Source: Neolewinella aurantiaca (GTDB lineage Bacteria > Bacteroidota > Bacteroidia > Chitinophagales > Saprospiraceae). Taken from it: a DNA stretch of 64,000 bases. Both the position numbers and the translations under genes were made by a program. This document shows positions 2,407 through 62,800 of the stretch, piece by piece. The DNA lies in NCBI RefSeq assembly GCF_008014675.1, contig NZ_VOXD01000033.1:1-64000 (forward strand), given 5' to 3'. Under the pieces are notes generated by a model. The model saw nothing but the letters and a program-made list of their open reading frames with translations, made no database searches and was not told the DNA's origin. Within the stretch, counting starts at the first letter, position 1, and every line of letters starts with the position of its first letter.

Positions 2407-2424
2407 GCATCCTGCGACCGCGCC
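2407..2424 (+). repeat. Dispersed short repeat, TGCATCCTGCG variant
   Basis: Sequence GCATCCTGCGACCGCGCC matches the window-wide consensus TGCA(T)CCTGCG-N-CCGCGCC. It lies 45 nt upstream of the GH3 start codon, in the likely 5' leader. Confidence 0.6.
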
Positions 2425-2468
2425 GTACTATTATTGTCAGATAGCTTTACCCCAGTCTTTCCCGAGTT

Positions 2469-5456
2469 ATGAACATGATCCCGCGTATTCTTTCCCTGAT
2501 CCTGCTGTGTGCAGCCAGTACCCTAACCGCCCAACAGTCATACAGGGGCGACCTTTCCACGCATACCGCAGAGGAGGGGCGTTGGGTAGATTCCGTTTTT
2601 GCCACCATGAACCTGGACCGTCAGCTGGGGCAACTCATTATGCTGCGGGCACACTCGGACCGGGGAGCAGACCATGTCGCTCACGTGAAGGCCGAGATAA
2701 AAAAGTACCACGTCGGCGGACTCTGCTTTTTTCAGGGGACACCCGAAAAGCAACTGGCCCTGACCAACGAATACCAGGCGCTGAGCAGCCTGCCGATGAT
2801 GGTGAGTATGGACGCGGAATGGGGGCTGGGGATGCGCCTGCCCGACCATACGATCAGCTTCCCGAAGCAGATCGCGCTCGGAGCGATCCGTAACAACGAA
2901 CTCATCTACGATATGGGCGCTGAGATTGCCCGGCAGATGCACCGTATGGGAGTGAATGTCAGCTTCAGTCCCGTGCTGGACGTCAACAACAACCCCAATA
3001 ATCCGGTCATCAATACGCGTAGTTTCGGCGAAGACCGCTACAACGTTATGGCCAAAGGATACCAGTACATGAAAGGCCTGCAGGACAATGGCATCCTGGC
3101 CAGCGCCAAGCACTTTCCCGGTCACGGAGATACGGGCACCGACAGCCACTACGACCTGCCGGTGATAACCCATGACCGCGCCCGCCTCGACAGCCTCGAG
3201 CTTTACCCGTTCAAAGCGTTGATCCGTTACGGTATCGGGTCGATCATGGCTGCTCACCTGCAAATACCGGCGCTGGACGACCGGAAAAACCGCCCGACTT
3301 CTATGAGCCTCCCGGTCATTACCGACTTACTACGTCACGAACTCGGCTTTACGGGATTGGTGTTTACCGATGGGTTGGAAATGAAAGGTGTAACCAACCA
3401 TTACAGTAACGGGGAAGTTGAAGCCGAAGCGATTATGGCCGATTCCGACATCTTACTCTTGCCGGAAAGCACGCCGGCAGCCATCACTGCGATAAAGAGG
3501 TACATCGCTGAGGGGAAGATCACGGAGGCGGATATCGAGAAGAAGGTCCGTCGGATTTTGTTGAGTAAATACCGGCTTGGCCTGAACCGACTTACGTTTC
3601 CCAGTCCGCGAAACCTCCGCGGCGAGTTGAACAGCCCGGAGGCTTACAGCCTGAAGCAGCGTCTGTTCGAAAACGCTATGACCCTGGTGCGCGATAGTGA
3701 AAAACTAGTGCCTGTACAACCAAAAGCACGGGGCAAAGTCGTGACCGTTCACATCGGGCAGCAAAGTCCTACTCCGTTCAGCCGGCGGGTCGATGACTAC
3801 GTAAAGACAACACATTACAGTACTTCTTACAAGGTCTCCGGGGCCGACCGCCAGCGGATCGAAAATGCCGTTGGCGAAGGAGATCAGGTGATTGTGGCAC
3901 TGTATTCCGATGGCAGCCGCTTCCTCGAGAAAGTTCCCGTGGGGCCGGAGGTGCTGGGGCTTCTCCGGGCGCTGGATGCTAAAGCCGAACTGGTACTTTC
4001 GGTATTCGGCAATCCTTACAGCCTGGCCGGGCTCGATGGTTTTGGGACCGTATTGATGGCTTACAGCCGCGATGATGTAGCCCAGGATGCCGCGGCTCAG
4101 GGTTTATTCGGGGCCAATAAGATTAACGGTCGCCTGCCGGTGACGGCAAGCCCCTCGGCGGCGTTCAACGCCGGCCTGGAAACCTCGCCCGCCTTCCGGA
4201 TGGGCTACGCCAACCCGGAAGCAGTAGGTATAGACGGTAACCTGCTGGATGCCAAAATAACCACCCTGGCGAATCAGGCAATGAGCCGCAAGGCGACCCC
4301 AGGCATGGTAGTGCTGGTAGGGCGCAACGGAAAGATTGTTTACGAAAAAGGCTTTGGCCGCCATACGTACAGCCGGAGCTCCCGGAAGGTAGACCCCAGT
4401 GATATTTATGACCTGGCCAGCCTCACCAAAGTATGTGCCACCACCCTTTCAATCATGAAGTTGGTGGAAGAAGGAAAACTCAACCTCGATGTCCCGATTA
4501 GTAACTACATGCCCGAATTGGTGGGCACCGAGGTGGAATTTCTAACCCTGAGACCGATTCTGGCTCATCGTGCAGGCCTGCGCAGTTGGGTCCCTTTTTA
4601 CGTGGAAACCCTGAACGCAAACGGGAAACCGAGCTCGCAGTATTACCGGAGTCAGAGAACAGGGGATTTCCAGATTGAAGTCGCCGAAAAATTATTTATG
4701 CACAAGAGCTACGTTGATTCGATGTGGCATAAAATATACACCAATGAGTTGCCCAACGAGGGGCAGTACCGCTACAGCGACCTTGGTTTTTACATTATGG
4801 CTAAGTTGATTGACCAAATCTCGGGCCTTACGGTAGACGAGTACGCTGCACGTAATTTTTACCGCCCTATGGGCCTTGAAACGATGACTTACCGCCCGCT
4901 GAGGAGCTTTCCTAAGAGCCGCATACCGCCGACGGAGAACGATAATTACTTCCGTCATGCGCAGGTTCACGGAACGGTCCATGATATGGGCGCTGCTATG
5001 CTTGGTGGCGTAAGCGGACACGCTGGCTTGTTCGGGTCGGCACGGGATATTGCAACCATCTTCCAGATGTTGTTGCAGGAAGGCAACTACGGCGGGGTAC
5101 AGTACCTGCGCCCCGAGACCGTCCGCCTCTTTGCGCACCGGTATGCTGATGAAACACGCCGTGGGCTTGGCTTTGATATGAAGCAACTCAACGAAAACCG
5201 GAGTATGAACATTTCACCCTTTGCCTCCGAGAAAGCATTTGGTCACCTCGGGTTTACGGGAATTGCTGCCTGGGCGGACCCCGTAGAGGACATAGTTTTT
5301 GTCGTGCTCTCTAACCGGACTTACCCGAGCATGAACAACAATACGTTCGGGAAACTGGACACGAGGCTACGACTACACTCCGCCTGTTACGAGAGCATCA
5401 TGAAGGGGAAATCCTTTGAAGGTCGGGGCGGGTTCGGGTTCAGTAAAGCGCCCTGA
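2469..5456 (+). CDS. GH3 beta-N-acetylhexosaminidase fused to serine beta-lactamase-fold hydrolase
   Basis: Secreted two-domain protein of 995 aa with a signal peptide (about 1-21, ending LTAQ). Residues about 35-380 form a glycoside hydrolase family 3 domain of NagZ type: KHFPGHG at 214-220 with D225-S226-H227, and the likely nucleophile Asp301 in FTDGLEM. A region of about 200 residues like the GH3 C-terminal domain follows. Residues about 600-980 are a beta-lactamase/transpeptidase-like serine hydrolase with S651-L-T-K654, a YSD triplet at 769-771 in place of YxN, and an HxG-like GHLGFTG near the C-terminus. Known NagZ enzymes remove GlcNAc from muropeptides. The second domain could act on peptides or esters, so cell-wall recycling in the periplasm is a reasonable inference. 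The gene stands alone, with no clear operon partner. Confidence 0.9.
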   Translation: MNMIPRILSLILLCAASTLTAQQSYRGDLSTHTAEEGRWVDSVFATMNLDRQLGQLIMLRAHSDRGADHVAHVKAEIKKYHVGGLCFFQGTPEKQLALTNEYQALSSLPMMVSMDAEWGLGMRLPDHTISFPKQIALGAIRNNELIYDMGAEIARQMHRMGVNVSFSPVLDVNNNPNNPVINTRSFGEDRYNVMAKGYQYMKGLQDNGILASAKHFPGHGDTGTDSHYDLPVITHDRARLDSLELYPFKALIRYGIGSIMAAHLQIPALDDRKNRPTSMSLPVITDLLRHELGFTGLVFTDGLEMKGVTNHYSNGEVEAEAIMADSDILLLPESTPAAITAIKRYIAEGKITEADIEKKVRRILLSKYRLGLNRLTFPSPRNLRGELNSPEAYSLKQRLFENAMTLVRDSEKLVPVQPKARGKVVTVHIGQQSPTPFSRRVDDYVKTTHYSTSYKVSGADRQRIENAVGEGDQVIVALYSDGSRFLEKVPVGPEVLGLLRALDAKAELVLSVFGNPYSLAGLDGFGTVLMAYSRDDVAQDAAAQGLFGANKINGRLPVTASPSAAFNAGLETSPAFRMGYANPEAVGIDGNLLDAKITTLANQAMSRKATPGMVVLVGRNGKIVYEKGFGRHTYSRSSRKVDPSDIYDLASLTKVCATTLSIMKLVEEGKLNLDVPISNYMPELVGTEVEFLTLRPILAHRAGLRSWVPFYVETLNANGKPSSQYYRSQRTGDFQIEVAEKLFMHKSYVDSMWHKIYTNELPNEGQYRYSDLGFYIMAKLIDQISGLTVDEYAARNFYRPMGLETMTYRPLRSFPKSRIPPTENDNYFRHAQVHGTVHDMGAAMLGGVSGHAGLFGSARDIATIFQMLLQEGNYGGVQYLRPETVRLFAHRYADETRRGLGFDMKQLNENRSMNISPFASEKAFGHLGFTGIAAWADPVEDIVFVVLSNRTYPSMNNNTFGKLDTRLRLHSACYESIMKGKSFEGRGGFGFSKAP

Positions 5457-5523
5457 TCGGAAAAGCATAGAGGCTTTATCCGGCTTTGACCTTACGCTCT
5501 GTTGAACCCTCGTTGTTGATCTG

Positions 5524-6243
5524 TCACTCCAATTCTTTTTGCACTAATGCCAGCGTGCTGCGGGCTTGTTCGATGGCCTCTGTATAAGCGTCGATGGTGG
5601 AACTGATACTGAACTGGTTGTAGACGACGTGATTCATAGCGGCCCGTTTTACGGTCAGATCGGTCAGGTTAGGTAGGATGTCCGGACTCTGCTGGTTATA
5701 AGCCGCAAAGTTGAAGTTTTGTACTATGAAAGGTAGCAGGAAATTATCGCGGTAGCGGGTTACGTCGTCATTGTTGTGCTCAACCAGGCTGTAGGACCTT
5801 GTGTACAATTCGGTCAGGTTGCGAACGATGTCGTCGTTGCGAATGAGCTCCATACGGCCGGTGCTTTCCAGGGCCCGGAAAGTGACCAGGCTGGGGTTGA
5901 AGTTGATTGTACTGGTAAGACTTATAAACGAAGCTGCCATACCTGCGGTCTGGCCCGGAGTGGGATTCTGCTCGCTAAAAAAAACGCTTATTTGCTGGCA
6001 GGCGTCGATTTGATCCTGGCGTTGTTCGAGGTCAGCTTCCAAAGCTTCCAGATCGCTGGTCAGGTCTTTGACGATGTCGTTGAGATAGGCGCTTTCGCGG
6101 GCTCCGTCTTTGTATCCGTTAAACCATTCGGTGATGGCAACCGAAAGCAGAATACCAACGATGATGATGGAGATTTCGAGCAGTGCTTTTCTGAGCCAGG
6201 AGCGTTTGGCGGGGGGAGTTGAAGCAGGTGGCTTGGTAACCAT
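5524..6243 (-). CDS. DUF6090-like single-pass membrane protein
   Basis: A 239-aa protein with a short Pro-rich N-terminus, one membrane segment (about 21-38, LLEISIIIVGILLSVAIT) and then a long, mostly helical region rich in charged residues (KDLTSDLEALEADLEQRQ). This layout, with the EW-x-N motif right after the membrane segment, is typical of the uncharacterised DUF6090 family common in Bacteroidota. The start at 6243 is chosen because the membrane segment follows directly. An upstream ATG would run antisense through the start of the neighbouring divergent transporter gene. The spacing to that gene is 84 nt, so both promoters must lie there. Function unknown. Confidence 0.8.
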   Translation of the reverse strand: MVTKPPASTPPAKRSWLRKALLEISIIIVGILLSVAITEWFNGYKDGARESAYLNDIVKDLTSDLEALEADLEQRQDQIDACQQISVFFSEQNPTPGQTAGMAASFISLTSTINFNPSLVTFRALESTGRMELIRNDDIVRNLTELYTRSYSLVEHNNDDVTRYRDNFLLPFIVQNFNFAAYNQQSPDILPNLTDLTVKRAAMNHVVYNQFSISSTIDAYTEAIEQARSTLALVQKELE

Positions 6244-6327
6244 AAGGCGAAATATGGGTTTGAGTATTTCAAATATACGGTACGGCGGTGAGCCGTACCT
6301 TCGCGTTTCAGGCAAGCCAGTCGACAC

Positions 6328-8706
6328 ATGAGTAAACAAAAATTCGGAACAGCCCCGGTATTCTTCACCGCCATCAGCACCATCCTGGGAGCAATCATGT
6401 TCCTCCGGTTCGGGTTTGCGGTAGGTATGGTTGGGTTGGCGGGTACTATGGTCCTCATCCTGATTGGCCATGCCGTTACGATTCCTACGGCGATGGCCAT
6501 CGCCGAAATCGCCACCAACCAGAAGGTAGAAGGCGGCGGAGAATACTACATCATTTCCCGGAGTTTCGGCTTAGTGATTGGTTCAACGATCGGGATGGCG
6601 CTCTATATGTCTCAGGCGATTTCGGTAGCGTTTTACATCATGGCTTTTACGGAAGCCTTCCGGCCGTTGGTCGATTGGGTGCTAGCTACCTATTCACTCC
6701 TTCCGTGGGCAGACTGGCTGCTGTCTCAGCCGCAGACGATTGGTATTCCTGCTCTGTTGCTGCTGACCGGCCTGATCCTCTCCAAAGGGGCAGACCTGGG
6801 CGTGAAGGTGCTCTACAGCGTGGTGTTCACGCTGGGTATTGCGCTGGCCGCTTTCTTTTTGGGAAGCACGGAGTATGCTGAGAACAACGACATCAACTTC
6901 TTCAACAGGTATACAGGTACGGTAGCAGAGAGCCAGGCAACCATCGACGGAATAACCCAGGCTGACCCTTCCGATACCGTGTCTTTTGGGGGCGAAGAAG
7001 TGGGGCTTCGCGAAGCACCCTCCGCTGCACCTGCGTCCGCGCCTGCTCCGAAACCAGTTGTTCCCAATATCAGTTTTTTTACCGTTTTTGCCATCATTTT
7101 TCCTGCTTTTACCGGCATGACGGCGGGCGTGGGATTGAGTGGAGACCTCAAGGATCCCGGGCGCAGCATTCCGTTGGGAACCCTTGCCGCGACGATTGGC
7201 GGAATGGTGATTTATTTCTTCATGGCGTGGAAACTGTCGGTTTCCGCTTCTCCGGAAATGCTGGCTGATACCAACCGCCTGGTGATGGCCGACATCGCAT
7301 GGCAGGGTTGGTGGATTATCCCACTGGGACTCGCCGCCGCAACGATCAGTTCTGCCCTCGGGTCAATTCTGGTCGCGCCCAGAACGTTGCAAGCTATTGC
7401 CGCAGATGAAATTTTCCCCGCTCCGGCACTCAATAACTGGATCAGCAAAGGGAAGGGCGAAAACAACGAGCCCTACAACGCCAGCCTGATTACCGTGCTG
7501 CTGGCTGCTTTTTTCATCATGCTGGGAGCGCTGGACAGTGTCGCCGAGATCATCTCGATGTTCTTCATGGTTACTTACGGCTCGCTTTGCCTGATCAGTT
7601 TCCTCAACCACTTCGCGGCCGATCCGAGCTACCGCCCCACTTTCCGCTCCAAGTGGTATGTCTCCCTTTTTGGCGCGCTTGCCTGTTTCGGGCTAATGTT
7701 TTTCATGAACTCGACTTACGCTGCGCTGGCGGTGGTCCTGATCGGGATCCTCTACGTTTACATCGCCTACGCTAACCCGGACAAGCGGAGCATGGCCCTC
7801 ATCTTTCAGGGGGTTATTTTCCAGTTCAGCCGGCGGCTGCAAATTTTTCTGCAAAAGGCCGATAAGGAGGAAAAGAAGAGCTGGCGCCCGAGTGTGATCG
7901 CAGCCAGCGATGCCACGTTTACCCGCCTGGGAGCCTTCGATTTACTGCGCTGGCTGAGCCAGAAGTACGGATTCGGAACTTACCTGCATTACGTAAATGG
8001 CTACCTGAGCCACGAAAAAAGTGAAGAGGCCGCACAAATTAAAAAACGGATCATCCGGATGGCCGAAGCGACCGACAGCCGCATCTATGTGGACACCATC
8101 GTCTCGCCTTCTTACACTTCAGCTATCGCCCAAACGGTACAGTTTCCGGGCATTGCAGGTACCGAAAACAATCTTTTGCTGCTGGAATATTCCAAGAACA
8201 ACAAAGAAGGCTTGTCGGACATCATCGACAATTTCAAGCTCATCAAGTCGGTTGATTTCAACGTAGGAATTCTTGGCTTGTCGGAGCGGGGCTTCGGACT
8301 GAAAAAAACGATCCACGTATGGATCACAAGGGCGCACTACGAAAGTGCCAACCTGATGATTTTGCTGGCTTACGTGATGACGGGACATCCCGACTGGCAA
8401 GGTGCGCAGATCAAACTCTTTGCGGTCTTCGAAGAATCCAAGATGGCTGCCGAAGAGCAGGCGCTTTACGACCTCATCGAAACCGGTCAGTTGCCCATCA
8501 GTCGCAACAATATCGACGTGTTGTGCCGGATGGACGACACGGACTCCAAGGCCGTCATCGCCCGCAAATCGGGCGAAGCAGACCTCGTTATCCTCGGCTT
8601 CCGGGACAAAGCCCTCAAGCGTATCGGCGAAGATTACTTTGCGGGCTACGATGAGATTGGTAACGTCCTGTTCGTGAATGCGAGTGAGGAGGTGGAAATC
8701 CGTTAA
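6328..8706 (+). CDS. SLC12-type (cation-chloride cotransporter-like) APC permease
   Basis: Inner-membrane transporter of 792 aa. About twelve membrane segments fill residues 10-480. GGGEYYIISRS (69-79) and GLSGDLKDPGRSIP (about 270-283) are hallmarks of the cation-chloride cotransporter branch of the APC superfamily. The remaining 300 residues form a soluble C-terminal domain like that of SLC12 proteins (ESANLMILLAYVMTGH). In eukaryotes the family moves Na/K with Cl; the bacterial substrate is not known. An Ala/Pro stretch (APASAPAPKP, from residue 234) sits in a loop just before the conserved segment. It is encoded by a copy of the dispersed 19-bp repeat, so it looks like an in-frame insertion. 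The gene is divergent from the DUF6090-like gene. Confidence 0.85.
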   Translation: MSKQKFGTAPVFFTAISTILGAIMFLRFGFAVGMVGLAGTMVLILIGHAVTIPTAMAIAEIATNQKVEGGGEYYIISRSFGLVIGSTIGMALYMSQAISVAFYIMAFTEAFRPLVDWVLATYSLLPWADWLLSQPQTIGIPALLLLTGLILSKGADLGVKVLYSVVFTLGIALAAFFLGSTEYAENNDINFFNRYTGTVAESQATIDGITQADPSDTVSFGGEEVGLREAPSAAPASAPAPKPVVPNISFFTVFAIIFPAFTGMTAGVGLSGDLKDPGRSIPLGTLAATIGGMVIYFFMAWKLSVSASPEMLADTNRLVMADIAWQGWWIIPLGLAAATISSALGSILVAPRTLQAIAADEIFPAPALNNWISKGKGENNEPYNASLITVLLAAFFIMLGALDSVAEIISMFFMVTYGSLCLISFLNHFAADPSYRPTFRSKWYVSLFGALACFGLMFFMNSTYAALAVVLIGILYVYIAYANPDKRSMALIFQGVIFQFSRRLQIFLQKADKEEKKSWRPSVIAASDATFTRLGAFDLLRWLSQKYGFGTYLHYVNGYLSHEKSEEAAQIKKRIIRMAEATDSRIYVDTIVSPSYTSAIAQTVQFPGIAGTENNLLLLEYSKNNKEGLSDIIDNFKLIKSVDFNVGILGLSERGFGLKKTIHVWITRAHYESANLMILLAYVMTGHPDWQGAQIKLFAVFEESKMAAEEQALYDLIETGQLPISRNNIDVLCRMDDTDSKAVIARKSGEADLVILGFRDKALKRIGEDYFAGYDEIGNVLFVNASEEVEIR
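7026..7043 (+). repeat. Dispersed short repeat inside transporter gene
   Basis: TGCACCTGCGTCCGCGCC matches the consensus exactly. Read in frame it encodes APASAP in an extramembrane loop of the SLC12-type transporter. Confidence 0.65.
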
Positions 8707-10431: not shown

Positions 10432-10450
10432 GGGCTCGTTAGCAGGTGCA
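10432..10450 (-). repeat. Degenerate dispersed repeat upstream of serA
   Basis: On the minus strand TGCACCTGCTAACGAGCCC shares the TGCACCTGC core and GCCC end, with four mismatches to the consensus. It lies in the serA leader directly after CTTTG. Confidence 0.35.
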
Positions 10451-17323: not shown

Positions 17324-17342
17324 GGGCGCTGACGCAGGTGCA
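17324..17342 (-). repeat. Dispersed short repeat after barrel gene
   Basis: On the minus strand TGCACCTGCGTCAGCGCCC matches the consensus with one change. It begins 8 nt after the stop codon of the barrel gene. Confidence 0.65.
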
Positions 17343-19182: not shown

Positions 19183-19201
19183 TGCACCTGCGTCCTCGCC
19201 C
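19183..19201 (+). repeat. Dispersed short repeat upstream of mbnP homologue
   Basis: TGCACCTGCGTCCTCGCCC has one mismatch to the consensus. It lies between the CDACGCG barrel gene and the MbnP homologue, 52 nt before the latter's start. Confidence 0.65.
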
Positions 19202-21301: not shown

Positions 21302-22828
21302 GTGAAAAAAATTACATACCTCGCAGTAGGTCTCGCATTGCTTCTTATTGTTATTTATGCTGCCGGTAAGATCATCGCTAATAGCAAGCTGAACCAACTG
21401 ATCGAATCCTCCAATGAGGAAGGAAACCTGCTTTCCGTCGGGGAGCGAAGCCTTTCGTTTAACTTACTCAACTTTGGTCTGGAACTCGACAGCGTCAGGC
21501 TGGACCAAAGAGTCGGGCCCCGTCGGGTATCCGGATCCATCGGCAGCGTTTCGCTCAGCGGCCTTAGCCTGCTGAAAGCGATTGGTGGAAGCATCGACAT
21601 CGACGACCTGCTGCTGGAGGGGGCTGATCTGGACATCCATCCCGCGCAAATGCGCGAGGATTCAACGAAAGATGACAGGGAAGACAAGAAGAAAATAACC
21701 CTGCACGAACTACGTCTGGTAAACAGCCGTGTTTTGAGTTACGACGAAGAAGGAACCCTGAAAGCAAAGATTGACGGCCTGAACATCAGCGGTGCCTTAC
21801 AACTTCCCCTTGCACCTGCGACCGCGCCCAAAATGCAGCTCTCGGCCAGTAAAGTCTTATTTCCTGCCACCGACGACACCGACCAGATAATAGATTCTCT
21901 GGAGATTAACGTAGAAAAGCGAACAGTGGAGATTGGTGATTTCAGGATTGCCCCGAAGATGGCAACCCGGGCGTTTCTGACTTCAATCGAGTACAAAAGA
22001 GCATGGCAGGCTCTACACCTCAAAGACGTAAAAGCAAGCGACGTACCTTTCGATAGCCTCCTCGCCGGAGGTCGTTCGGTGTTTCCCGAAATAACCATCG
22101 GTGATCTGAGTTTTGCGATCTACGAAAACCCCAGCCTGGAGCGTTCCCCGAACGAACCGTACAAGAAGTTCCCGATCGAAAAGTTCCGGCAGTTAGGTGA
22201 GGAAATATGGCTCCAATCGCTGACGGTGGAACAGGCCAACATCGCTTACGGCGTCCATAAAGAAGGGGCTGAAAGACCAGACATCACCTTCTCCGGAAGC
22301 ATCAAAGCCGGTAACTTCAGCACGTGGAAACAGAATAAGCCCGCTTTTATGGAGATAGACTGTCTTTTCGAGAAGACGTCTCCTCTTAAGGTTCGCTTTG
22401 AGCTTGACCAACGCGGAGACGGGCGCGATTTCACCACTACAGGAACCCTAAGGGATTACGACCTTCCCAAGATAAACCCGCTGATGATTGTTGCGGCGAA
22501 CGCCGATATAGAAAAAGGATACATCACGGAACTAAACCATAATTTCAGCATCGAAAACGGAGTGGCGAAGGGGGATTTGCTGCTGAGATACAACAATCTG
22601 GAAGTGAAAATGACGGGCAAAAATGCCTGGTTCATTAACCTTATCGAAGATCTCGCTATCCGCGATTCCAATCCGCGCAACGATGGCGACCTTGTTGTCG
22701 GAACAGTACATGCGGAGCACATCCCGACAAAGTCTTTCTTCAATATCTACTGGAAATCCCTGGTGTCAGGGATGAAAAGCTCAGTAGCGGGGAAGGTCTT
22801 CATCCCCGAAGAGATTACCCCGGAGTAA
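21302..22828 (+). CDS. AsmA/DUF748-like membrane-anchored protein
   Basis: A 508-aa protein with one N-terminal membrane segment (about 5-20) and a long extracytoplasmic part built of short beta strands (NFGLELDSVRLDQ, SLSGLSLLKAIGGSIDIDDLLLEGADLDIH). This layout is that of AsmA/DUF748-type proteins, which bridge the periplasm and have been linked to lipid transport and envelope integrity. The start is GTG at 21302, the only one that gives the membrane segment. A dispersed repeat copy encodes LAPATAP around residue 171, in a loop between strands. The family assignment is moderate; I see no catalytic motif. Confidence 0.65.
   Translation: MKKITYLAVGLALLLIVIYAAGKIIANSKLNQLIESSNEEGNLLSVGERSLSFNLLNFGLELDSVRLDQRVGPRRVSGSIGSVSLSGLSLLKAIGGSIDIDDLLLEGADLDIHPAQMREDSTKDDREDKKKITLHELRLVNSRVLSYDEEGTLKAKIDGLNISGALQLPLAPATAPKMQLSASKVLFPATDDTDQIIDSLEINVEKRTVEIGDFRIAPKMATRAFLTSIEYKRAWQALHLKDVKASDVPFDSLLAGGRSVFPEITIGDLSFAIYENPSLERSPNEPYKKFPIEKFRQLGEEIWLQSLTVEQANIAYGVHKEGAERPDITFSGSIKAGNFSTWKQNKPAFMEIDCLFEKTSPLKVRFELDQRGDGRDFTTTGTLRDYDLPKINPLMIVAANADIEKGYITELNHNFSIENGVAKGDLLLRYNNLEVKMTGKNAWFINLIEDLAIRDSNPRNDGDLVVGTVHAEHIPTKSFFNIYWKSLVSGMKSSVAGKVFIPEEITPE
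21811..21829 (+). repeat. Dispersed short repeat inside AsmA-like gene
   Basis: TGCACCTGCGACCGCGCCC is a full consensus copy. In frame it encodes APATAP, in a likely surface loop. Confidence 0.7.
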
Positions 22829-25136: not shown

Positions 25137-25547
25137 GATGATTTTCTTTCCCATACGCCATTCGACTTCATTGTGTTCGTTAAGGAAGGTGGACTATTTT
25201 AATTTTTTTTAATTTTTTCTTCGTTGACTGTAAGCTGAGTACGAAGCCAGGTGCCTGAAGAGCAGATAAGGTGAAACTTCATATATAGGATTCGTACGGT
25301 CAGGGCCCGACGCCTGAAAAAGACAATCAGGCGCGAACGCAGGATGCAAAGATGGTTTCAAGGAAGAGCCAGTAGTACAGGGTGACCGGGAGACGGGGCC
25401 AATTGCCCAAACGCACGAATTCCGGGCAGTGAATGTTAATTCTCATACTACAACTGTAATTTAAATTCATTCTTTGTCTTTCAGCCCCTAACTTTAGGGC
25501 CCTTCCGGGGGCTTTTATGCCCCGGCCAAACCCCCAAACCAACACCC
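25137..25547. other. Intergenic region between divergent SDR and iorA
   Basis: About 400 nt with no credible gene. It has an A/T tract (25196-25220), one dispersed repeat copy (25330-25348) and A/T-rich sequence with TAACTTTAGG at 25488, a near match to a -7 element for the plus-strand iorA gene. Confidence 0.5.
25330..25348 (-). repeat. Dispersed short repeat, TGCATCCTGCG variant
   Basis: On the minus strand TGCATCCTGCGTTCGCGCC, preceded by CCATCTT. The copy at 31051 has the same CCATCTT prefix and CGCGCCTGA end, so these two copies share about 27 aligned bases. Confidence 0.65.
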
Positions 25548-26015
25548 ATGGCTAACTTTTCAATCAGTGTAAACGGCAAAAGCCACGAGGTAGACGTCGA
25601 TCCTAAAACCCCGCTCCTTTGGGCCATTCGTGACGAACTTGGCTACGTAGGTACCAAATTCGGCTGCGGCATCGGACAGTGCGGAGCGTGTACTGTTCAC
25701 GTAGACGGCGTAGCTATGCGCTCGTGCCAGATGACCGTAGAGAACATCGCTTCGCGGAACAGCGAAATCACAACCATCGAAGGATTATCCGAAAACGGAG
25801 ACCACCCCGTTCAGCAGGCCTGGCTTGAGCACGACGTGCCGCAGTGCGGCTACTGTCAGGCCGGGCAGATTATGAGTGCAGCTTCGCTGCTCAGCAACAT
25901 CCCTAACCCTTCGGACGAAGACATAAGTGCGGGAATGGCCGGCAATATTTGTCGTTGTGGTACTTATAAAAGGATTCATGCTGCGGTTAAGACTGCCGCC
26001 ACGAAGATGAGCTAG
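25548..26015 (+). CDS. iorA: (2Fe-2S) subunit of isoquinoline 1-oxidoreductase-type enzyme
   Basis: A 155-aa iron-sulfur subunit of the xanthine oxidase family. Cys40, 45, 48 and 60 (GCGIGQCGAC and SC) bind the plant-type ferredoxin cluster. Cys100, 103, 135 and 137 (QCGYCQAGQ, GNICRCGTY) bind the second cluster. It passes electrons from the molybdenum subunit encoded by the next gene; with a Tat signal on that partner, the complex probably acts in the periplasm and hands electrons to a cytochrome. The substrate could be an N-heterocycle or an aldehyde. The symbol follows the best-known relative and is not a claim about substrate. Confidence 0.88.
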   Translation: MANFSISVNGKSHEVDVDPKTPLLWAIRDELGYVGTKFGCGIGQCGACTVHVDGVAMRSCQMTVENIASRNSEITTIEGLSENGDHPVQQAWLEHDVPQCGYCQAGQIMSAASLLSNIPNPSDEDISAGMAGNICRCGTYKRIHAAVKTAATKMS

Positions 26016-26044
26016 AAAGCCGCCGCATCATCCAGGTTGCCGTA

Positions 26045-26063
26045 GCAAGGGCAAAGCCCTTGC
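26045..26063. repeat. Perfect short hairpin between iorA and iorB
   Basis: GCAAGGGC-AAA-GCCCTTGC, an 8-bp perfect stem in the 123-nt gap between the two subunit genes. No T run follows. It may tune the relative amount of the two subunits. Confidence 0.5.
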
Positions 26064-26138
26064 TCACTTCCTGTGAGGAATAGCTGGCGCTCAGCCTCTC
26101 AACAATCCCTCTTTTCCATCCCACACCAAGATAAAATT

Positions 26139-28331: not shown

Positions 28332-28357
28332 GCTCAGGTTACCGTACCGGAAACGCA

Positions 28358-28398
28358 AAGGCCAGCCTTCCCCTGAGGGGAGGCTGGCCTTGCTTTTT
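28358..28398 (+). terminator. Strong intrinsic terminator after iorB
   Basis: AAGGCCAGCCTTCCCC pairs with GGGGAGGCTGGCCTT around a TGA loop, and GCTTTTT follows. One of the clearest terminators in the window. Confidence 0.9.
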
Positions 28399-28429
28399 GG
28401 CCCCCGGAGCCGGGCCCTGATGGTATCAT

Positions 28430-28448
28430 TGCACCTGCGTTCGCGCCT
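28430..28448 (+). repeat. Dispersed short repeat between convergent genes
   Basis: TGCACCTGCGTTCGCGCCT fits the consensus. It lies just beyond the iorB terminator and 18 nt from the stop of the convergent lipoprotein gene. Confidence 0.7.
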
Positions 28449-28466
28449 TCTGCACGATGTTGCTGC

Positions 28467-29555: not shown

Positions 29556-29621
29556 AGCAAAGGTGGTTTTGTCCCTTTATGCGCAAAAGCGGGGTGCTGT
29601 TACACCGGCGTGGTTTTTTTT

Positions 29622-30378: not shown

Positions 30379-30396
30379 ATTGTTCAGACGGCATAA

Positions 30397-47883: not shown

Positions 47884-48651
47884 CTACAGCCGGTCGTAAC
47901 GCCACAGCTCCAGGTCCTCGATCATCCGGACGAGTTTGTCGCCATAGCGGGGGTCTGTTGCGTAGCCTGCTTTCCGCAGGCCGTGCGACCAGTTTTTATA
48001 GTCGGTTTTTGCCAGAGTGAAGAGGCTTTTGTAGCGCGACTTCATCAGTACCTTAGAGTGTTCCCGGTAGCTCTCTTCGGGTGTTTCGAAATTGCGGAAG
48101 AAGTCTTTGTGGTGATCGTCGGAATGGTTCGAGCAGTGCCCTTTGCGGCACTTCTTGCTGAAGCATTTGATGCCGAAGTGGTTGTTGTTCTTCCGGGCAA
48201 GGGTGCTCCGCCCGGTCCCGCTTTCCAGCAGCCCCTGGGCAAGCGTTATACTGGCGGGTATGCCGTGTGTTTCCATCTCGGCGAGCGCAACGAGCTTAAA
48301 GCGATCTACGTAAGCGAGCTGTTTCTTCTGGCGTGCGGTCCATTCTTTTGCCGGAGCAACGTAGCCCGTCAGCTTTGCTTCAGTAACGGCCTCTGCACCT
48401 GCGGCCCCGCCCGAAATCGTTGGGCCGCCCGCTGAATTATTGAATACTGAAGTCTCTTTTACCGATAGCCATCCGTCTCCACCCCCGATGGACACATTGA
48501 AACTGAACTCTCGTTGGGTAAACAAAAGGGTGAGACAAGCCAAAACTACAAGTTTTGTCCAGGGGCTGGTGACCTGTTTATGTACCCGCTGATAGAGTTC
48601 GTTCAAAAGAAGCTTCCAGCCGGTGGGTATGGGGAGTTGCGCTTGTTTCAT
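47884..48651 (-). CDS. Membrane-anchored glucosaminidase domain protein
   Basis: A 255-aa protein with a cytoplasmic N-terminus, one membrane segment (about 31-47) and an extracytoplasmic GH73-type glucosaminidase domain (about 110-255) with HGIPASITLAQGLLESGTG, NNHFGIKC and GYATDPRYGDKL. It is a close relative of the LysM protein at 34224 but has no LysM and stays anchored. It probably trims peptidoglycan glycan strands. A linker (GGAAGAEAV) before the domain is encoded by a dispersed repeat copy. Confidence 0.87.
   Translation of the reverse strand: MKQAQLPIPTGWKLLLNELYQRVHKQVTSPWTKLVVLACLTLLFTQREFSFNVSIGGGDGWLSVKETSVFNNSAGGPTISGGAAGAEAVTEAKLTGYVAPAKEWTARQKKQLAYVDRFKLVALAEMETHGIPASITLAQGLLESGTGRSTLARKNNNHFGIKCFSKKCRKGHCSNHSDDHHKDFFRNFETPEESYREHSKVLMKSRYKSLFTLAKTDYKNWSHGLRKAGYATDPRYGDKLVRMIEDLELWRYDRL
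48394..48412 (+). repeat. Dispersed short repeat inside glucosaminidase gene
   Basis: TGCACCTGCGGCCCCGCCC. On the coding (minus) strand it encodes GGAAGAE, in the linker between membrane segment and catalytic domain. Confidence 0.65.
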
Positions 48652-48805
48652 TTTGTTTTAATTGTGAGCGCAAGGTATACACTTTGCTTTAAGTTTGCAA
48701 CAAAACAAGATTTGTTTGTTAATTTTAATTCGTTTTGTTTGAATTTGATTCGTCGTTTACGCAAGCCTTAACCCTTTCTTAAGAGGCCTGTCCGGGCCTG
48801 CTGGT

Positions 48806-48813
48806 TAACTTTG
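48806..48813 (+). promoter_or_regulatory. TAnnTTTG promoter element for OmpH gene
   Basis: TAACTTTG, 23 nt upstream of the OmpH-like ATG. Confidence 0.55.
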
Positions 48814-48836
48814 CGGTCTTACAATTCCCCTGTTTT

Positions 48837-49340
48837 ATGAAAAAGCTTTTTTTTGTTTTCCTGCTTACTGCCTTTTCCATCTCTTCTGCTTTTGCTCAGA
48901 AATACGGACACGTTAACTTCGGGAATCTTCTCAGTCTGATGCCTGAGGTTGCTACTGCCGAAGCCGAGCTTCAGACTTACGAAAAAGAGCAAATTGCTAT
49001 AGGAGAAAAGATGGTGGCAGACTTCAAGAAGGAATACGCCGAAACGGAAGCGAAGGTGAACGATATCACACCAAAGGAGTTGCAGACCATTCAGGCCAAG
49101 CTCGAAAAAGACCAGGTTGCTATCCAGAAATTTGAGCAGCAAATGGGCCGTAACGTAGAGATCAAGCGCCAGGAGTTGCTTGGCCCGATCATTCAGAGCG
49201 CCAAGGATGTAGTAAACACAATCGCCGAGGAACTGGGCTACGAACTGGTCTTTGATTCTTCGATCTTCGGTTCAATACTATTTGCTGAAGATACTACCGA
49301 TCTTTTGCCTGCGGTTAAAGAGCGCCTCGGTATCGAGTAA
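48837..49340 (+). CDS. OmpH/Skp family periplasmic chaperone
   Basis: A 167-aa secreted protein. A signal peptide (about 1-20, ending SAFAQ) is followed by YGHVNFGNLLSLMPEVATAE, the typical OmpH/Skp N-terminus, then a long charged coiled coil (about 45-125) and a small C-terminal domain. Skp trimers hold unfolded outer-membrane proteins in the periplasm. In Bacteroidota OmpH genes often follow bamA; here the gene stands alone and convergent to the amidase gene. Confidence 0.88.
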   Translation: MKKLFFVFLLTAFSISSAFAQKYGHVNFGNLLSLMPEVATAEAELQTYEKEQIAIGEKMVADFKKEYAETEAKVNDITPKELQTIQAKLEKDQVAIQKFEQQMGRNVEIKRQELLGPIIQSAKDVVNTIAEELGYELVFDSSIFGSILFAEDTTDLLPAVKERLGIE

Positions 49341-49347
49341 CACCGGT

Positions 49348-51012
49348 TTAAAAACCTTCCGGGTGTAAATCGTCCCACTGGGTAGCTGCCTGGTAGGCAG
49401 CTGCAATATTCACGAGGGACTGCTCACCGAAGAGCTTTCCCGTAAAGGTGATGCTGGTGGGCGTTCCTTCTTCGTTCATCCCGTTGGGTACCGTGATGCT
49501 CGGGTGCCCGGTCATATTGGTAATGAACAGACTGTTGGAGTGCCAGCTCGGGTTTACGTAGGCGTCTACATCAGCTTCGGCGAACGCTTTGTCTACATCT
49601 TCCATGAGTTGGCGGCGCAGCCGGCTGGCCTGTACGTAGGCGACGGCGGGCACGAAGTGCGCGGTCCGGAAAGCGTTGGGCCATGCGTTGGCTATTTGCC
49701 GTGTCAGTTCGTCGTCTTTGTTACTGCGGGTCAGAGATTCAAAGGCGGCCGCTGCTTCGACGTTGAGCATAAAACCGATGTTAGGTTCCTCCGGCAATTC
49801 GATCGGCACCAATTCGTAGCCCAGTTCTTTGAGCACCTCCAGGGCGGTGGAGTCCTGACTGCGGAACGGGTAATCCCGCTCCATTCTCGATTTATAATAT
49901 CCCAGGCGGGTTCCTGCTTTCACACGGGTAGTTGGCCATTCGTACTGAAAACCCGCTTCAATGGCGTGCGCATCGCGCGGGTCGTAGTTGGCAATGGCCG
50001 CGAGCACCAGTCCGGCATCGGCTGCAGAGCGGGTAATTGGGCCAATTTTATCCATACTCCAGCTCAGGGCCATCGCTCCGTGGCGGCTTACCCGCCCGAA
50101 GGTCGGGCGCAGACCGGTGGTGCCACAAACGGTGCTCGGGCTCACGATGCTGCCCAGCGTTTCGGTGCCGATGGCGAAGGGAACAAGGCCAGCCGCAACG
50201 GCGCTTGCGGAGCCGGCGCTCGAACCCGAACTACCCTTTTCCGTATCCCAGGGGTTGCGGGTCATCTCGCCGTACCAGACATCTCCCCAGGCCAGGGCGC
50301 CCATGCTGAGTTTTGCGATCAGGATGGCACCGGCATCGTCGAGTTGCTCGATGACCGACGCGTCCACATCAATAGTTTGGTCTTTGTAGGGGGCTGCGCC
50401 CCAGGTAGTAGGGTAACCTTTAGCGGCAAGCAGGTCTTTTGCACCGTAGGGAATGCCGTGCAGCGGGCCACGGTATTTCCCCGCGGCGAGTTCGGCGTCC
50501 AGAGCGTCGGCCCGGGCCAGTGCGCGTTCTTCGGTCAGGGTGATCACGCAGTGCAGTTCCGGTGCTTTCAGCTTCAGCCGTTTTATGAAAGCTTCGGTTA
50601 CTTCCCGGCAGCTCGCTTTGCGGTCTCTGATGAGGTGGCCCAGGCGCGCAACGGTCATCCATTTCAGCCAACCTCCGTCGGCGCAAAGTGGCGAAGAGAG
50701 AGGAGGCGGGGCCGCAGGTGCAGAGACGGTTTTTGAAGCAGGAAGCTGCTCCGCCCGCAGTACCGGGTTGAAGATCAGGGTAGGGGACAGGCCGTTGTTC
50801 AGCGGGGTTTGGCCCAACTCCTGCAGTGTTTCGCGTTGCCGCTCAAGGCCGGGTAGTGCGAGCTCGATCTCGTCGTCGTCCAGAAAATCGATGCCGAGGA
50901 CTTTGGCAGCGGTCTCTACGTCGCTTTTCGTGAGGGCTTCGTTGATGGCCATGCCGAAGGCGAAGATGAGCAGGGCGATGCCGGTAAGCAGTAGTGGCTT
51001 TGGGATATTCAT
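49348..51012 (-). CDS. Amidase signature family protein, membrane-anchored or secreted
   Basis: A 554-aa amidase. The catalytic triad Lys192 (PYGAKDL), Ser264 (SSGSSAGSAS) and Ser288 (GTETLGSIVSP) is intact. An N-terminal hydrophobic segment (about 7-22) indicates export or anchoring. The family hydrolyses amide bonds in many substrates; which one is open. The region from residue 98 (SAPAAPPPLSS) is a linker encoded by a dispersed repeat copy, placed just before the amidase domain begins at about 118. It converges on the OmpH gene, with 7 nt between stops. Confidence 0.87.
   Translation of the reverse strand: MNIPKPLLLTGIALLIFAFGMAINEALTKSDVETAAKVLGIDFLDDDEIELALPGLERQRETLQELGQTPLNNGLSPTLIFNPVLRAEQLPASKTVSAPAAPPPLSSPLCADGGWLKWMTVARLGHLIRDRKASCREVTEAFIKRLKLKAPELHCVITLTEERALARADALDAELAAGKYRGPLHGIPYGAKDLLAAKGYPTTWGAAPYKDQTIDVDASVIEQLDDAGAILIAKLSMGALAWGDVWYGEMTRNPWDTEKGSSGSSAGSASAVAAGLVPFAIGTETLGSIVSPSTVCGTTGLRPTFGRVSRHGAMALSWSMDKIGPITRSAADAGLVLAAIANYDPRDAHAIEAGFQYEWPTTRVKAGTRLGYYKSRMERDYPFRSQDSTALEVLKELGYELVPIELPEEPNIGFMLNVEAAAAFESLTRSNKDDELTRQIANAWPNAFRTAHFVPAVAYVQASRLRRQLMEDVDKAFAEADVDAYVNPSWHSNSLFITNMTGHPSITVPNGMNEEGTPTSITFTGKLFGEQSLVNIAAAYQAATQWDDLHPEGF
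50704..50722 (-). repeat. Dispersed short repeat inside amidase gene
   Basis: On the minus (coding) strand TGCACCTGCGGCCCCGCCT. In frame it encodes APAAPP, at the boundary between the N-terminal region and the amidase domain. Confidence 0.65.
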
Positions 51013-59805: not shown

Positions 59806-59843
59806 GGAGAGGTGTTACATCATCTCCTTGAAGTACCCGGAAA

Positions 59844-62800
59844 TCACTCCCGTGGCCGCCGCAGAAAGAATACCGGCGAAATCAGCAGGATGACCAATAA
59901 TGAGAATACCAGCCCGCCGATAGTCCCCGCCGCCAGCGCATACCAGAATACTTCATTGCGCCCACCCAGAAGGAAGGGGATTAAACCGGCTGCGGTAGAA
60001 ATGACGGTAAGTACGATCGGTAGTATTTTATGCCTGATTGCGGTCGCGTAAAGCTGTGCTTCCATCCATTCCGGATTGCATTTTCGTAAGTAATTAAATT
60101 CATTAACGACAAGGATCAACCCGTTGACCGCCAGGCCGGTAACGAGTAGGAAGCTGGTGTATCCGCCCTGGTCTAACCGGACATTGAAGTAATAAAAGGT
60201 AATGAATATCCCAATGCATGAAATTGGGATTAAAAATATGATGTTAAGCGCCTGCCGGAGCGATTCAAACAGGACAGCACAGATGAAAAAGATCAATAAA
60301 ACCGCCAAGCCCATTAGGTAAGTCAGCTGCTTCGCCTCCTGATCGTAGGAAAAAGACCGTCGCTCGACGGTGAAGCCAAGTGGAAGGCCCGCGCGCAGGG
60401 TGTCGAGACACGCAGTAAGGTGTTTGTTGCCGAAGCGCGGGCTGCCGAGGTACTCGAAGGAGACGAGGCGGAGGTACTGCTGGTTTTCCTTATGCAGCGC
60501 CTGAGGCGCGACGCGTTTTTCCAGGCTGGCAACGGTGGAGAAATCAAACTGCATTGAATCACGGGGAACGGACCAGTTCTCCAGCCGCCAGCGGTCGTAT
60601 CGTCTGGGGTTTTCGGCGGTGAGGGCGACGGGGTCGCCGCCACTGAGGTAAAAGTTGGGCTGTTCGTTGCGGTTGAACCAGGCGAGGCTCGCGCTGAGGT
60701 CTGAAGGAGAGAGGCCTTGACGGGCGAGGTCGGGCGCACGGACGTTCAGTCGGTACTCGTAGCGGTCTTTCTCCCACCAGCTGATGTTGGCATCGGTGTT
60801 GACCTCCTGCACCCGCGGATGCTTGAGTAGGAGCTCCGCCAGGTGTCCGGACTGCTCGTCCAGCCCCGCCTGGTTGTATCCCTTGAGCGTAACGTTGAAG
60901 CTTACCGGGCGGCCGCCGGAGTCGTTGCTGAAGCCCTGCCCTACGCCGTAGATGTTCCACTTTACACCGCCGAAGTTGCTGGCGTAGGCCGTCAGGCGGT
61001 TCTTGAGTGTATAGGGAAAGCCGCTTGCCCCCCGACCCCCAAAGGGGGAGGGCGGAGGGAAGGTGATCTCCAACCGCGCGTTTTGCCCGGAATACACCTG
61101 GGCGGTGAAGCGCTCGATCTTATCTGGAAAGCGCCCCAGATAGGCTTCTACCTGCCCGACAACCTCGTTGAGCTGGGCCAGGGTAGCGCCGTCGGGCAAA
61201 GCCGCACCGACGTACAGCCGCGTTTCTTCCGGCGCGCGGTAGCCGCCGCCTTCGTAGACGTAGTAGCTGAAGAGCCGGAAGCTGCCGCCCAGGTATTTAT
61301 TGAGGTGGGGTCGGAGCTGGTCGCGGTAAAAGTCGGAGCCAATGGTTTTGTTGTACAGCGGGAAGTCGTCTACTTTATTCGGGAGCCACCAGAGAGGGAG
61401 GCCGAAGGCGAGGATGGTGGCCAGGAGGACCTTTTTTTTGTGGTTGAGGAGAAAGGAGAGGAGTTTGGAGTAGAGAGTTTGTAGTCGGGAGTCTGGAGTC
61501 GGGAGTTTGGAGTCACTGCCGTGAGCACCACTCAGTTCGCTACGCTCCTTCGCCTTGGGTGAGTAAGCGTAGCGTCGCGAACGGTGTTTGCGGTAGCGAC
61601 TCCCGACTCCCGACTCCCGACTCGAGCCTCCCGGCTCCCTGTTCCCTGCTCCTCCAACCAAACCCGGCACCAGCGTCAGCGCCACCAAAACGCTCGTAGC
61701 CAGATTGATGGCCATTACGCGGGCGAGTTCAAACAATTGGGTCCGGAGTTCGTCCGACAGGAACCAGATGACGGAAAGGCCGGCAAGGGTGGTGAGGGTT
61801 GCGCCGATGATGGCCGGGCCGAGGGCACCACCGGGGCGGCGCAGGCCGTCGAGCACGATGATGATGTTGTCGATCATGATGCCGAAGGAAACAGCGATGC
61901 CCGCGAAGGCGTAGAGGTTGAGCTCCACGCCGAAGAGCCAGTAACAGAGGAAGGCGAGGCCGAGGTTGACGGCGAGGCTGAAAACAACCACGCCAAGGCG
62001 GCGCACGCTGCGGTAGGCAATGAGCACGAAAAGCAGCAGAATGCCCATGCTGAGGGCGGTGCGGCTGCGCGTTTTGGCCAGCTCGTCGCGCAGAAAACGG
62101 GTCGCATCGTCTTCAAGAGAGAGGGCGTAACCGGCGCGCAGGTCGTTTTCGAGGGCGCGGACGCGGGTGCCGAGTTCGGATGCGAGGGCAATGCGGTTGG
62201 CATCGTCGGTGGCGTAAGCGAGAAGGCGGATGCTGTTCTCCCCGTTGATGCGGTAGAAGCCCCTTGGTGGCAGCGGAACCCGCTCAATGGTGGCGAGGTC
62301 TCCGAGACGAAGCTGGCGCTGGCTGGTGGCGGGCAGAGGGATGTTGGCCCATTGCCCTCCAGCGCCCGAGGGGGAAGTGCTGCCGTCGAGGTTTTGCCCC
62401 CCAGCCCCCAAAGGGGGAGTGCCGCCGTCGAGATAGGCGTAGAGTTTTTCGTTGCGCTCGGAAAGAAAGCCGAGGCCGCTGCGCTGAAAATAGCTTTGCA
62501 GGTGCGCCGTGATGGCCGCCTGACTAAGCCCGGCCGTAGCCACCCGCTCAGGGTTCAGGCTGATGCGCCAGTGCGGCCGGTTGCCGCCTGCCACCTCCAT
62601 CCGGTTGAGGCCCCGCAGCAGACTGAGGCGCGGCACCACCTGCTCGGAGGCGTAGCGGTAAAGCTCGGAGGGGTCAGCCGGACCGCTCAGGGTGTAGGTC
62701 ATCACCGGGAGGTCGGTCTTATTGTCGTCGTTGCCTGAAGTGTAGCTGAGGGTAGGGTAGCCGACGCCGTCCGGCAGCCCCGAATAAATGCGCCGAATCT

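What the first reader, a model, noticed from the sequence alone, without database searches (positions are those of the whole stretch)
2407..62170. A dispersed ~19-bp repeat (TGCA[T]CCTGCG-N-CCGCGCCC) in about twenty places
Seen directly: near-identical copies at 2407, 7026, 8718, 12973, 17324, 19183, 21811, 25330, 28430, 29622, 31051, 43952, 48394, 50704, 54387 and 58126, with weaker ones at 10432, 10829, 12765, 37594, 38615 and 62153. Both orientations occur. Two length forms exist, TGCACCTGCG and TGCATCCTGCG; the third block varies only at two or three positions before GCGCC. About ten copies lie in the short gaps between genes, which make up a small fraction of the DNA. A 19-mer should not occur once by chance in 64 kb. 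It could be a protein-binding site, a chromosome-organisation or DNA-uptake sequence, or a minimal proliferating element. Some copies follow TCTTTG or CTTTG, so part of the pattern may reflect transcription-start context.
Basis: seen in the sequence. Interest (0 to 1): 0.88.

Follow-up and report, generated by a model that had tools for sequence, protein, structure and literature searches.

The report
Strand-spaced DNA tags in Lewinella genomes
A bacterium of the Lewinella group carries some two thousand copies of one short DNA sequence, evenly spaced on each DNA strand separately and spelled differently in related species, which looks like a tag for recognising its own kind's DNA.

Summary
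The repeat is real. All 22 listed places carry it; two more were missed (45452, 61666). A 44-bp matrix trained on this genome finds 301 sites above 18 bits in 861 kb (reversed-matrix control: 1), about 2,100 per genome by extrapolation. The genome is an unnamed Lewinella/Neolewinella.

The own spelling is abundant only in this genus. Relatives use other spellings, "dialects". Sites keep orthologous positions in 60 of 82 aligned cases, are fourfold enriched between genes, and occur in phage contigs.

The strongest new fact is spacing. Same-strand copies avoid each other within about 2-2.5 kb (9 pairs under 2 kb; strand-shuffled mean 63); opposite-strand copies do not. It recurs in G014 with another dialect (2 against 20). 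There is no bias to gene strand or contig strand.

Best reading (0.5): a self-DNA tag for natural transformation, like DNA uptake sequences but acting strand-specifically. No uptake assay was possible. Type IV pilus ATPases are not convincingly present and the Riemerella-type uptake pair was found in one genus member only, so the receptor is unknown. A Chi-like signal is the main rival; a mobile element is unlikely.

The parts
2407..2424 (+). core copy, TGCA-shifted form, upstream of ORF 2469
   Evidence: 15.6 bits; position conserved in 5 relatives
7026..7043 (+). core copy, coding (Ala-Pro linker)
   Evidence: 32.5 bits; conserved without indel in L058/L205
8719..8736 (-). core copy just after stop of ORF 6328-8706
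   Evidence: 27.3 bits; not seen in the L058 sequence aligned there
10433..10450 (-). core copy, intergenic
   Evidence: 24.5 bits; conserved in L207
10830..10847 (+). core copy, shifted form, coding
   Evidence: 15.8 bits; conserved in L206
12766..12783 (-). core copy, coding
   Evidence: 35.3 bits; conserved in L206
12973..12990 (+). core copy, coding (GADAGA, fast-evolving linker)
   Evidence: 40.4 bits; not present in the G003 ortholog
17325..17342 (-). core copy, intergenic, 8 bp after an ORF end
   Evidence: 44.0 bits; context
19183..19200 (+). core copy, intergenic
   Evidence: 37.8 bits
21811..21828 (+). core copy, inside ORF 21302-22828
   Evidence: 40.9 bits; ORF
25330..25347 (-). 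core copy, shifted form, divergent gap
   Evidence: 29.1 bits
28430..28447 (+). core copy, convergent gap
   Evidence: 29.8 bits
29622..29639 (-). core copy, intergenic
   Evidence: 39.4 bits
31052..31069 (+). core copy, shifted form, divergent gap
   Evidence: 25.5 bits
37595..37613 (-). variant with one extra base, coding
   Evidence: conserved in L084
38615..38632 (+). core copy, coding
   Evidence: 26.0 bits; conserved in L084
43952..43969 (+). core copy, intergenic
   Evidence: 34.9 bits
   Evidence: 34.7 bits
48394..48411 (+). core copy
   Evidence: 36.6 bits
50705..50722 (-). core copy
   Evidence: 36.7 bits
54387..54404 (+). core copy, divergent gap
   Evidence: 21.4 bits
58127..58144 (-). 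core copy, divergent gap
   Evidence: 28.7 bits
   Evidence: 32.7 bits
62154..62171 (-). core copy, inside ORF 59844-63107
   Evidence: 33.2 bits; ORF

Best explanation
The motif (about 40 bp, consensus YYCC...AACcttCcYTGCACCTGCGKCCGCGCCC..AAA) is a self-DNA tag that works like the DNA uptake sequences of Neisseriaceae and Pasteurellaceae. DNA carrying it is preferentially taken up or processed during transformation and recombined into the chromosome, and this recurrent transfer (molecular drive and/or selection) keeps about one copy per 5.7 kb on each strand. Unlike what is reported for known uptake sequences, the tag seems to be read on one strand or in one direction only, so a second same-strand copy within a transferred tract (about 2-3 kb) is redundant and lost, while the other strand is independent. 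Shown here: abundance, dialects, conserved positions, coding accommodation, strand-specific spacing, presence in phage contigs. Inferred: that uptake or recombination of transferred DNA is the cause; that recognition is strand-specific; the 2-3 kb tract length.
For: Abundance far above chance. Reciprocal dialects within the genus: CTGCGNCCGCGCC 608 in G000 and 44 in G014, CYGCGGCAGCGCC 13 in G000 and 659 in G014; further dialects de novo in G001 and G011. Orthologous sites kept in 60 of 82 aligned, non-independent cases. Intergenic enrichment, 169 of 301 sites in 13.6% of the DNA, and near-exclusion from one peptide frame (1 site; the other opposite-strand frames 32 and 40) parallel uptake sequences. 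Same-strand exclusion with regular spacing: CV 0.49 against 0.84 shuffled, replicated strongly in G014 and in the same direction in five smaller samples. No bias by contig strand (152/149 overall) or coding strand (63/69), which leaves free-DNA or end processing rather than transcription or replication. ComEC in 21 of 21 and DprA in 20 of 21 genus genomes. Phage contigs with 1.3-3.7 sites per 10 kb (host 3.5), as Haemophilus phage HP1 carries 17 uptake 9-mers in 32 kb. In Neisseria, uptake-sequence spacing matches conversion-fragment size (PMC2397512, passages).
Against: Searches for Saprospiraceae with natural competence and Lewinella with DNA uptake found no papers, so no transformation data. 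No convincing type IV pilus ATPase in the genus: partial hits of about 19-25 bits, a few marginally at the 24.9-bit cut-off, against 410-423 bits in three genomes of other genera. The Riemerella-type surface protein DUF5689 (1 of 21 genus genomes) and its receptor-like partner (1 of 17 searched) were found only in G011, so no receptor can be named. ComEC and DprA are also common in relatives that lack the own spelling. H. influenzae uptake is reported as orientation-independent (PMC1939737, passages), and HP1 shows four consecutive same-strand 9-mer pairs under 1 kb, so strand-specific exclusion is not seen there. In one search the G006 sample showed no alternation (under 2 kb 8 alternating, 7 same), and G007 gave no certain motif (9 and 4). 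Overall alternation was absent in the small G002 sample (7 and 8).
Confidence: 0.5

Rival explanations
1. A Chi-like recombination or self-protection signal: a nuclease-helicase entering at DNA ends reads the motif on one strand and switches to repair, so each strand needs a copy every few kb in host and phage DNA.
For: Strand specificity, equal strands, regular per-strand coverage, presence in phage contigs; largest site-free gap 10.9 kb in 861 kb.
Against: Known Chi sites are short (5-8 bp, recalled); this is about 30 bits over 44 columns. E. coli Chi follows replication direction (recalled); here strands are equal per contig. Maintaining some 2,000 long sites by selection for repair alone is demanding (inference).
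Confidence: 0.2
2. A binding site for a chromosome-organising protein, regularly spaced to structure the nucleoid.
For: Regular spacing, asymmetrical 40-bp footprint, intergenic preference.
Against: A double-strand binder should space all sites, but opposite-strand sites are not depleted and -+ pairs cluster (37 in the 0-500 bp bin against 13 expected). Dialect turnover and phage carriage are not expected.
Confidence: 0.12
3. A short proliferating element (REP/MITE-like) spread by copying.
For: Copy number of one spelling differs widely among species (3 to 1,025); close inverted pairs occur; two intergenic absent cases have 26 and 33 gap positions around the site; ++ neighbours are slightly more alike than random (z 2.4, n 31).
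Against: No information in flanks beyond about 40 bp, no consistent hairpin (10 sites, z -2.06 to +0.85); other neighbour classes no more alike than random apart from 6 short +- pairs; sites sit in frame in genes with one frame almost unused; no whole-motif insertion between matching flanks among 17 absent cases; low counts in several genomes are dialect differences. Transposases were not searched.
Confidence: 0.05
4. The same-strand gap is a by-product of deletion between close direct repeats, not of function.
For: Only same-strand copies are depleted.
Against: 69 same-strand neighbours under 3.5 kb are as alike as random pairs (22.8 against 22.7 of 42); depletion is nearly complete to 1.5 kb and ends near 3 kb, unlike slippage, which should fall off steadily (inference); close inverted pairs are enriched. 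It would not explain the motif itself.
Confidence: 0.1

Closest known systems
Neisseriaceae DNA uptake sequence (DUS) and its dialects
   Same: Thousands of copies, one per 1-3 kb, species dialects, intergenic enrichment, also in genes, inverted pairs (PMC3630211 and PMC2397512, passages)
   Different: Motif about 40 bp rather than 10-12; strand-specific exclusion; no convincing type IV pilus ATPase; no uptake test; close -+ pairs 44-300 bp apart rather than tight terminators
Pasteurellaceae uptake signal sequence (USS)
   Same: Core plus flanks, high abundance, relatively even distribution (PMC7811141, passages), carried by a host phage (HP1, 17 in 32 kb)
   Different: USS action reported as orientation-independent (PMC1939737, passages) and HP1 USS show no same-strand exclusion (n 17); different phylum, no known machinery
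Chi sites
   Same: Strand-specific, abundant, may be carried by phages (recalled)
   Different: Much longer motif, no strand bias along contigs, regular spacing
HIP1 of cyanobacteria
   Same: Highly iterated short sequence of unknown role (recalled)
   Different: HIP1 is an octameric palindrome (title in the reference list of PMC1939737); this is long and asymmetric

Membership tests
DUS/USS | Very abundant near-consensus motif dispersed genome-wide | tested here: met
   301 sites >18 bits in 861 kb, reversed-matrix control 1; 608 exact against 4
DUS/USS | Related species carry distinct dialects of one motif | tested here: met
DUS/USS | Intergenic enrichment with accommodation in tolerated peptides | tested here: met
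DUS/USS | Motif enhances uptake or transformation of DNA | not testable with these tools
   needs a competent strain
DUS/USS | Type IV pilus uptake machinery present | tested here: not met
   PF00437: only partial hits of about 19-25 bits in genus; other pilus proteins not searched
DUS/USS | Orientation-independent action | tested here: inconclusive
   spacing is strand-specific, an indirect sign against; action itself not measured
Riemerella-type Bacteroidota transformation | DUF5689 surface protein and outer-membrane partner | tested here: not met
   DUF5689 in 1 of 21 genus genomes; partner in 1 of 17
Riemerella-type Bacteroidota transformation | ComEC, DprA and DUF1343 (PF07075) proteins | tested here: met
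   21, 20 and 20 of 21 genus genomes; common elsewhere too
Chi | Recognised as single strand by RecBCD/AddAB | not testable with these tools
   -
REP/MITE | Palindromic or inverted-repeat structure | tested here: not met
   asymmetric matrix; 10 folded sites
REP/MITE | Clean insertions with target duplication | tested here: inconclusive
   none of 17 absent cases is a whole-motif insertion between matching flanks, but two intergenic ones have 26 and 33 gap positions; coding case
REP/MITE | Cognate transposase in genome | not tested
   -
Gene transfer agent packaging signal | Conserved vertical phage-like cluster | tested here: inconclusive
   portal PF04860 in 2 of 21 genus genomes; other portal families not tested
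HIP1 | Palindromic octamer | tested here: not met

The most novel reading that the evidence does not exclude
A pilus-independent, strand-read self-DNA tag: the motif is recognised on single-stranded incoming DNA after ComEC (for example at the DprA/RecA step or by an unknown factor), so host and phages each keep one copy per transferred tract on each strand. It would be a new origin of uptake-type sequences, in Bacteroidota, and one shown to act per strand.
Probability: 0.25. Interest if true: 0.93.

Novelty: new variant of a known kind. Interest (0 to 1): 0.82.

Why it matters
DNA uptake sequences are best known from Neisseriaceae and Pasteurellaceae, which use type IV pili (PMC7811141, passages). 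An independent origin in Bacteroidota without convincing pilus ATPases, with dialects and strand-specific spacing, would give a new test of drive against selection and would point to an unknown DNA receptor. The spacing rule makes a falsifiable prediction about transfer tract length. It would also give a handle for genetics in a group for which I found no transformation report.

Tried and rejected
Composite gene cassettes flanked by inverted repeats: suggested by alternating order; rejected because neighbouring copies are mostly no more alike than random (++ neighbours z 2.4 and 6 short +- pairs z 2.1 are the exceptions) and alternation follows from per-strand spacing. Terminators: close -+ pairs carry no T-run in the right place (read sequences) and nearly half the sites are coding. 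Transcription-linked role: coding strand equal. Type IV pilus, DUF5689 and phage-portal routes tested.

Other genera (100 kb each): G033 and G055 gave nothing of comparable strength; G025 was swamped by arrays and says nothing; G035 gave one weak alternating word (17 sites, 12 alternating, 4 same) that I did not follow up. De novo search failed in G006 (local arrays) and G007 (low-complexity words). Phage scans with two other dialects gave 69 and 49 stretches, none with two or more sites of that dialect, so single hits are background. Papers: searches; among their listings I saw no report of uptake sequences in Bacteroidota. Karlin et al. 1996 is not held. The toy simulation (one run of each setting) is illustrative only. 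The tblastn part found no G011 uptake-pair or neighbour gene in the fetched stretches except two cytochrome-type hits.
Full report
OBSERVATION. Every one of the 22 places listed carries the motif. A 44-column matrix trained on the genome's own copies (so in-sample) finds 301 sites above 18 bits and 294 above 20 bits in 860,767 bases, while the same matrix read backwards finds 1 and 0. The score distribution has a clear gap between sites and background. The window holds 23 matrix sites above 14 bits plus the 37595 variant. The exact 13-mer CTGCGNCCGCGCC occurs 608 times in the 6.0-Mb genome against 4 for the reversed pattern. Extrapolating 301 sites gives about 2,100 per genome.

WHOSE GENOME. 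The best named relatives of a window gene are Lewinella and Neolewinella (Saprospiraceae, Bacteroidota), the closest two at 90% protein identity. The window's species itself is unnamed.

ANATOMY. The motif is asymmetric and about 40 bp long: a 19-bp core TGCACCTGCG-K-CCGCGCC(C), a CT-rich stretch and AACC on its left, pyrimidines further left, and A-rich bases on its right. In 22 of 310 copies TGCA is shifted one base while AACC keeps its distance to CCTGCG. Ten folded sites show no consistent hairpin (z from -2.06 to +0.85).

WHERE IT SITS. With a home-made gene caller (643 genes, 86.3% coding), 169 of 301 sites are intergenic in 13.6% of the DNA. Of 167 intergenic sites with a gene on each side, 116 point their GCGCC end to the nearer gene and 51 away. 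In genes, 63 lie on the coding strand and 69 opposite. One of the six reading options is almost unused (1 site; the other opposite-strand frames hold 32 and 40, the same-strand frames 27, 15 and 25), and the used frames give peptides such as APAAAP, GADAGA, ARTQVQ, LHLRPR and CTCVRA, the last often at signal-peptide ends. This looks like accommodation, not random insertion.

STRAND-SPECIFIC SPACING. Along contigs, orientation alternates: +- 126, -+ 124, ++ 32, -- 27 among 315 sites above 14 bits. By distance, same-orientation neighbours are 1 of 38 below 300 bp, 1 of 39 at 0.3-1 kb, 5 of 56 at 1-2 kb, 15 of 52 at 2-3 kb, 10 of 46 at 3-4 kb, 19 of 59 at 4-6 kb and 8 of 19 beyond. Taken per strand, spacing averages 5.6 kb with CV 0.49 (strand-shuffle mean 0.84, sd 0.05). 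Same-strand neighbour pairs closer than 1 kb number 2 (shuffled 36, sd 4.4) and closer than 2 kb 9 (shuffled 62, sd 5.6). Opposite-strand pairs are not depleted, apart from 8 against 13 expected for +- within 500 bp, and -+ pairs within 500 bp are in excess (37 against 13). Counting all same-strand pairs below 2 kb against strand shuffles: G000 9 against 63.3; G014 2 against 19.9; G011 4 against 11.3; G001 3 against 8.2; G019 0 against 3.0; G005 3 against 6.8; G002 0 against 2.3. The last three samples are 100 kb each. G006, scanned with a matrix re-estimated from the own-genome one, did not show alternation (8 and 7 under 2 kb), and G007 gave no certain motif. Strand counts are equal overall (152/149) and close on each contig. 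So the process that spaces the sites seems to see one strand or one direction, yet ignores transcription and, as far as contigs can show, replication direction.

DISTRIBUTION AND DIALECTS. In a search of 60 genomes including my own, the 13-mer is abundant only within the genus: 3 to 1,025 copies in 20 genus relatives, at most 5 in each of 39 others. Some low counts reflect spelling. De novo motif search finds in G014 GCACCtGCGgCAGCGCCc (121 sites in 500 kb), in G001 ttttACCTGCGCtCCG.CG (49 in 300 kb), and in G011 a much changed form whose reverse is GGcTatCAAAGTAGCAAtG (67-69 in 200 kb). G019 uses TGCACCcGCGaCCGCGCC. The G014 spelling CYGCGGCAGCGCC occurs 659 times in G014 and 0 to 63 times in the other 18 genus genomes of that search, whereas G014 has 44 of the own spelling. 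Spellings of several low-count species were not worked out. Orthologous sites are retained in 60 of 82 aligned cases between species, 5 are weak and 17 absent by the own-dialect matrix; cases are not independent, and the matrix under-scores other dialects. None of the absent cases is a whole-motif insertion between matching flanks, but two intergenic ones have 26 and 33 gap positions around the site, so indels are not excluded there. The one absent coding case read in detail (12973) lies in a fast-evolving linker, with one residue of length difference at the site in the protein alignment and a 10-base gap in the DNA alignment. In 100-kb samples of four other genomes (three of the family, one of the order) two gave nothing comparable, one was swamped by arrays and one gave a weak unfollowed word.

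MACHINERY. ComEC is in 21 of 21 genus genomes and DprA in 20 of 21, the exception being 55% complete. PF00437 (PilB/PilT family) gives only short hits of about 19-25 bits in the genus, some marginally at the cut-off, against 410-423 bits in three genomes of other genera. Natural transformation in Bacteroidota has been shown in Riemerella anatipestifer, with an unusual protein set: DUF5689, a carboxypeptidase-regulatory-like outer-membrane protein, a helix-hairpin-helix protein and DUF1343 (PMC8459023; abstract and sections 19-20 read). DUF5689 is in 15 of 16 sampled other genera of the family (some weakly) but in only 1 of 21 genus genomes, G011. There it lies beside a TonB-receptor-like gene (weak plug and carboxypeptidase-regulatory matches, below Pfam cut-offs) that was likewise found in G011 alone among 17 genus genomes searched. 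G011 also has the most divergent dialect I identified. DUF1343 (PF07075) is in 20 of 21. The motif thus exists with and without this pair, which argues against DUF5689 being its reader, and the receptor, if any, is unknown.

PHAGES. A scan of viral contigs with TGCACCTGCGNCCGCGCC gives 59 stretches. Fifteen, from 14 contigs, carry two or more sites above 22 bits, with 1.3-3.7 sites per 10 kb above 14 bits; these stretches were found by having a copy, so density is biased upward. Of 20 proteins from six stretches, 12 match phage families, including portal, terminase, tape measure, tail fibre and endolysin in L224, L226, L241 and L242. That their hosts are Lewinella is inferred. Control scans with two other dialects give 69 and 49 stretches, none with two or more sites of that dialect. 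For comparison, Haemophilus phage HP1 has 17 copies of the uptake 9-mer in 32,000 bases, including four consecutive same-strand pairs under 1 kb, so HP1 parallels the phage carriage but not the strand-specific exclusion.

INTERPRETATION. Abundance, dialects, permissive placement, phage carriage and spacing on the kilobase scale of transfer tracts match DNA uptake sequences (PMC3630211, PMC2397512, PMC7811141 and PMC1939737, passages). Strand-specific exclusion and the lack of convincing pilus ATPases do not. The simplest account is a tag that helps incoming DNA to be taken up or recombined, read on one strand, with redundant same-strand copies lost. A toy model with strand-specific redundancy gives this pattern, and a strand-blind one does not; it is only an illustration. 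A Chi-like recombination signal would give the same statistics and is the main rival. I therefore claim that it works like an uptake sequence (0.5) and do not file it as a DUS or USS.

Noticed in passing
L213 (G011:C115) 2174-7102: TonB-receptor-like gene plus DUF5689 gene, the Riemerella-type uptake pair; DUF5689 was not found in the other 20 genus genomes nor the receptor in the other 16 searched.
   Followed up: partly
L220-L263 (IMG/VR contigs): Fifteen viral stretches carry two or more strong copies of the tag.
   Followed up: partly
window 48376-50740 and 25327-31072: Two inverted site pairs alike beyond the consensus (36 nt at 89%, 32 nt at 91%), perhaps local copying; not typical of neighbours overall.
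   Followed up: partly
window 61460-61652: GA/CT-rich array (GAGTCGGGAGT and reverse) with inverted arms; similar words are over-represented in G000 and G011 samples.
   Followed up: no
window 12-75 and 2227-2317: Inverted repeats (22 nt arms 91% and 34 nt arms 79% complementary), possibly terminators.
   Followed up: no
L185-L189 (G035:C49 1-100000): Weak dispersed word around CTATTGTAT, 17 sites, 12 alternating and 4 same in order.
   Followed up: no
L105-L109 (G019:C1 1-100000): Palindrome CGATAGCTATCG counted 8 times over both strands (each place counts twice) and TAGGCGGTAGGC repeats.
   Followed up: no
L110-L114 (G006:C73): Dense local arrays of other repeats (GAGGTCAAGACG, GACGTAAAACGT) that swamp motif discovery.
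   Followed up: no
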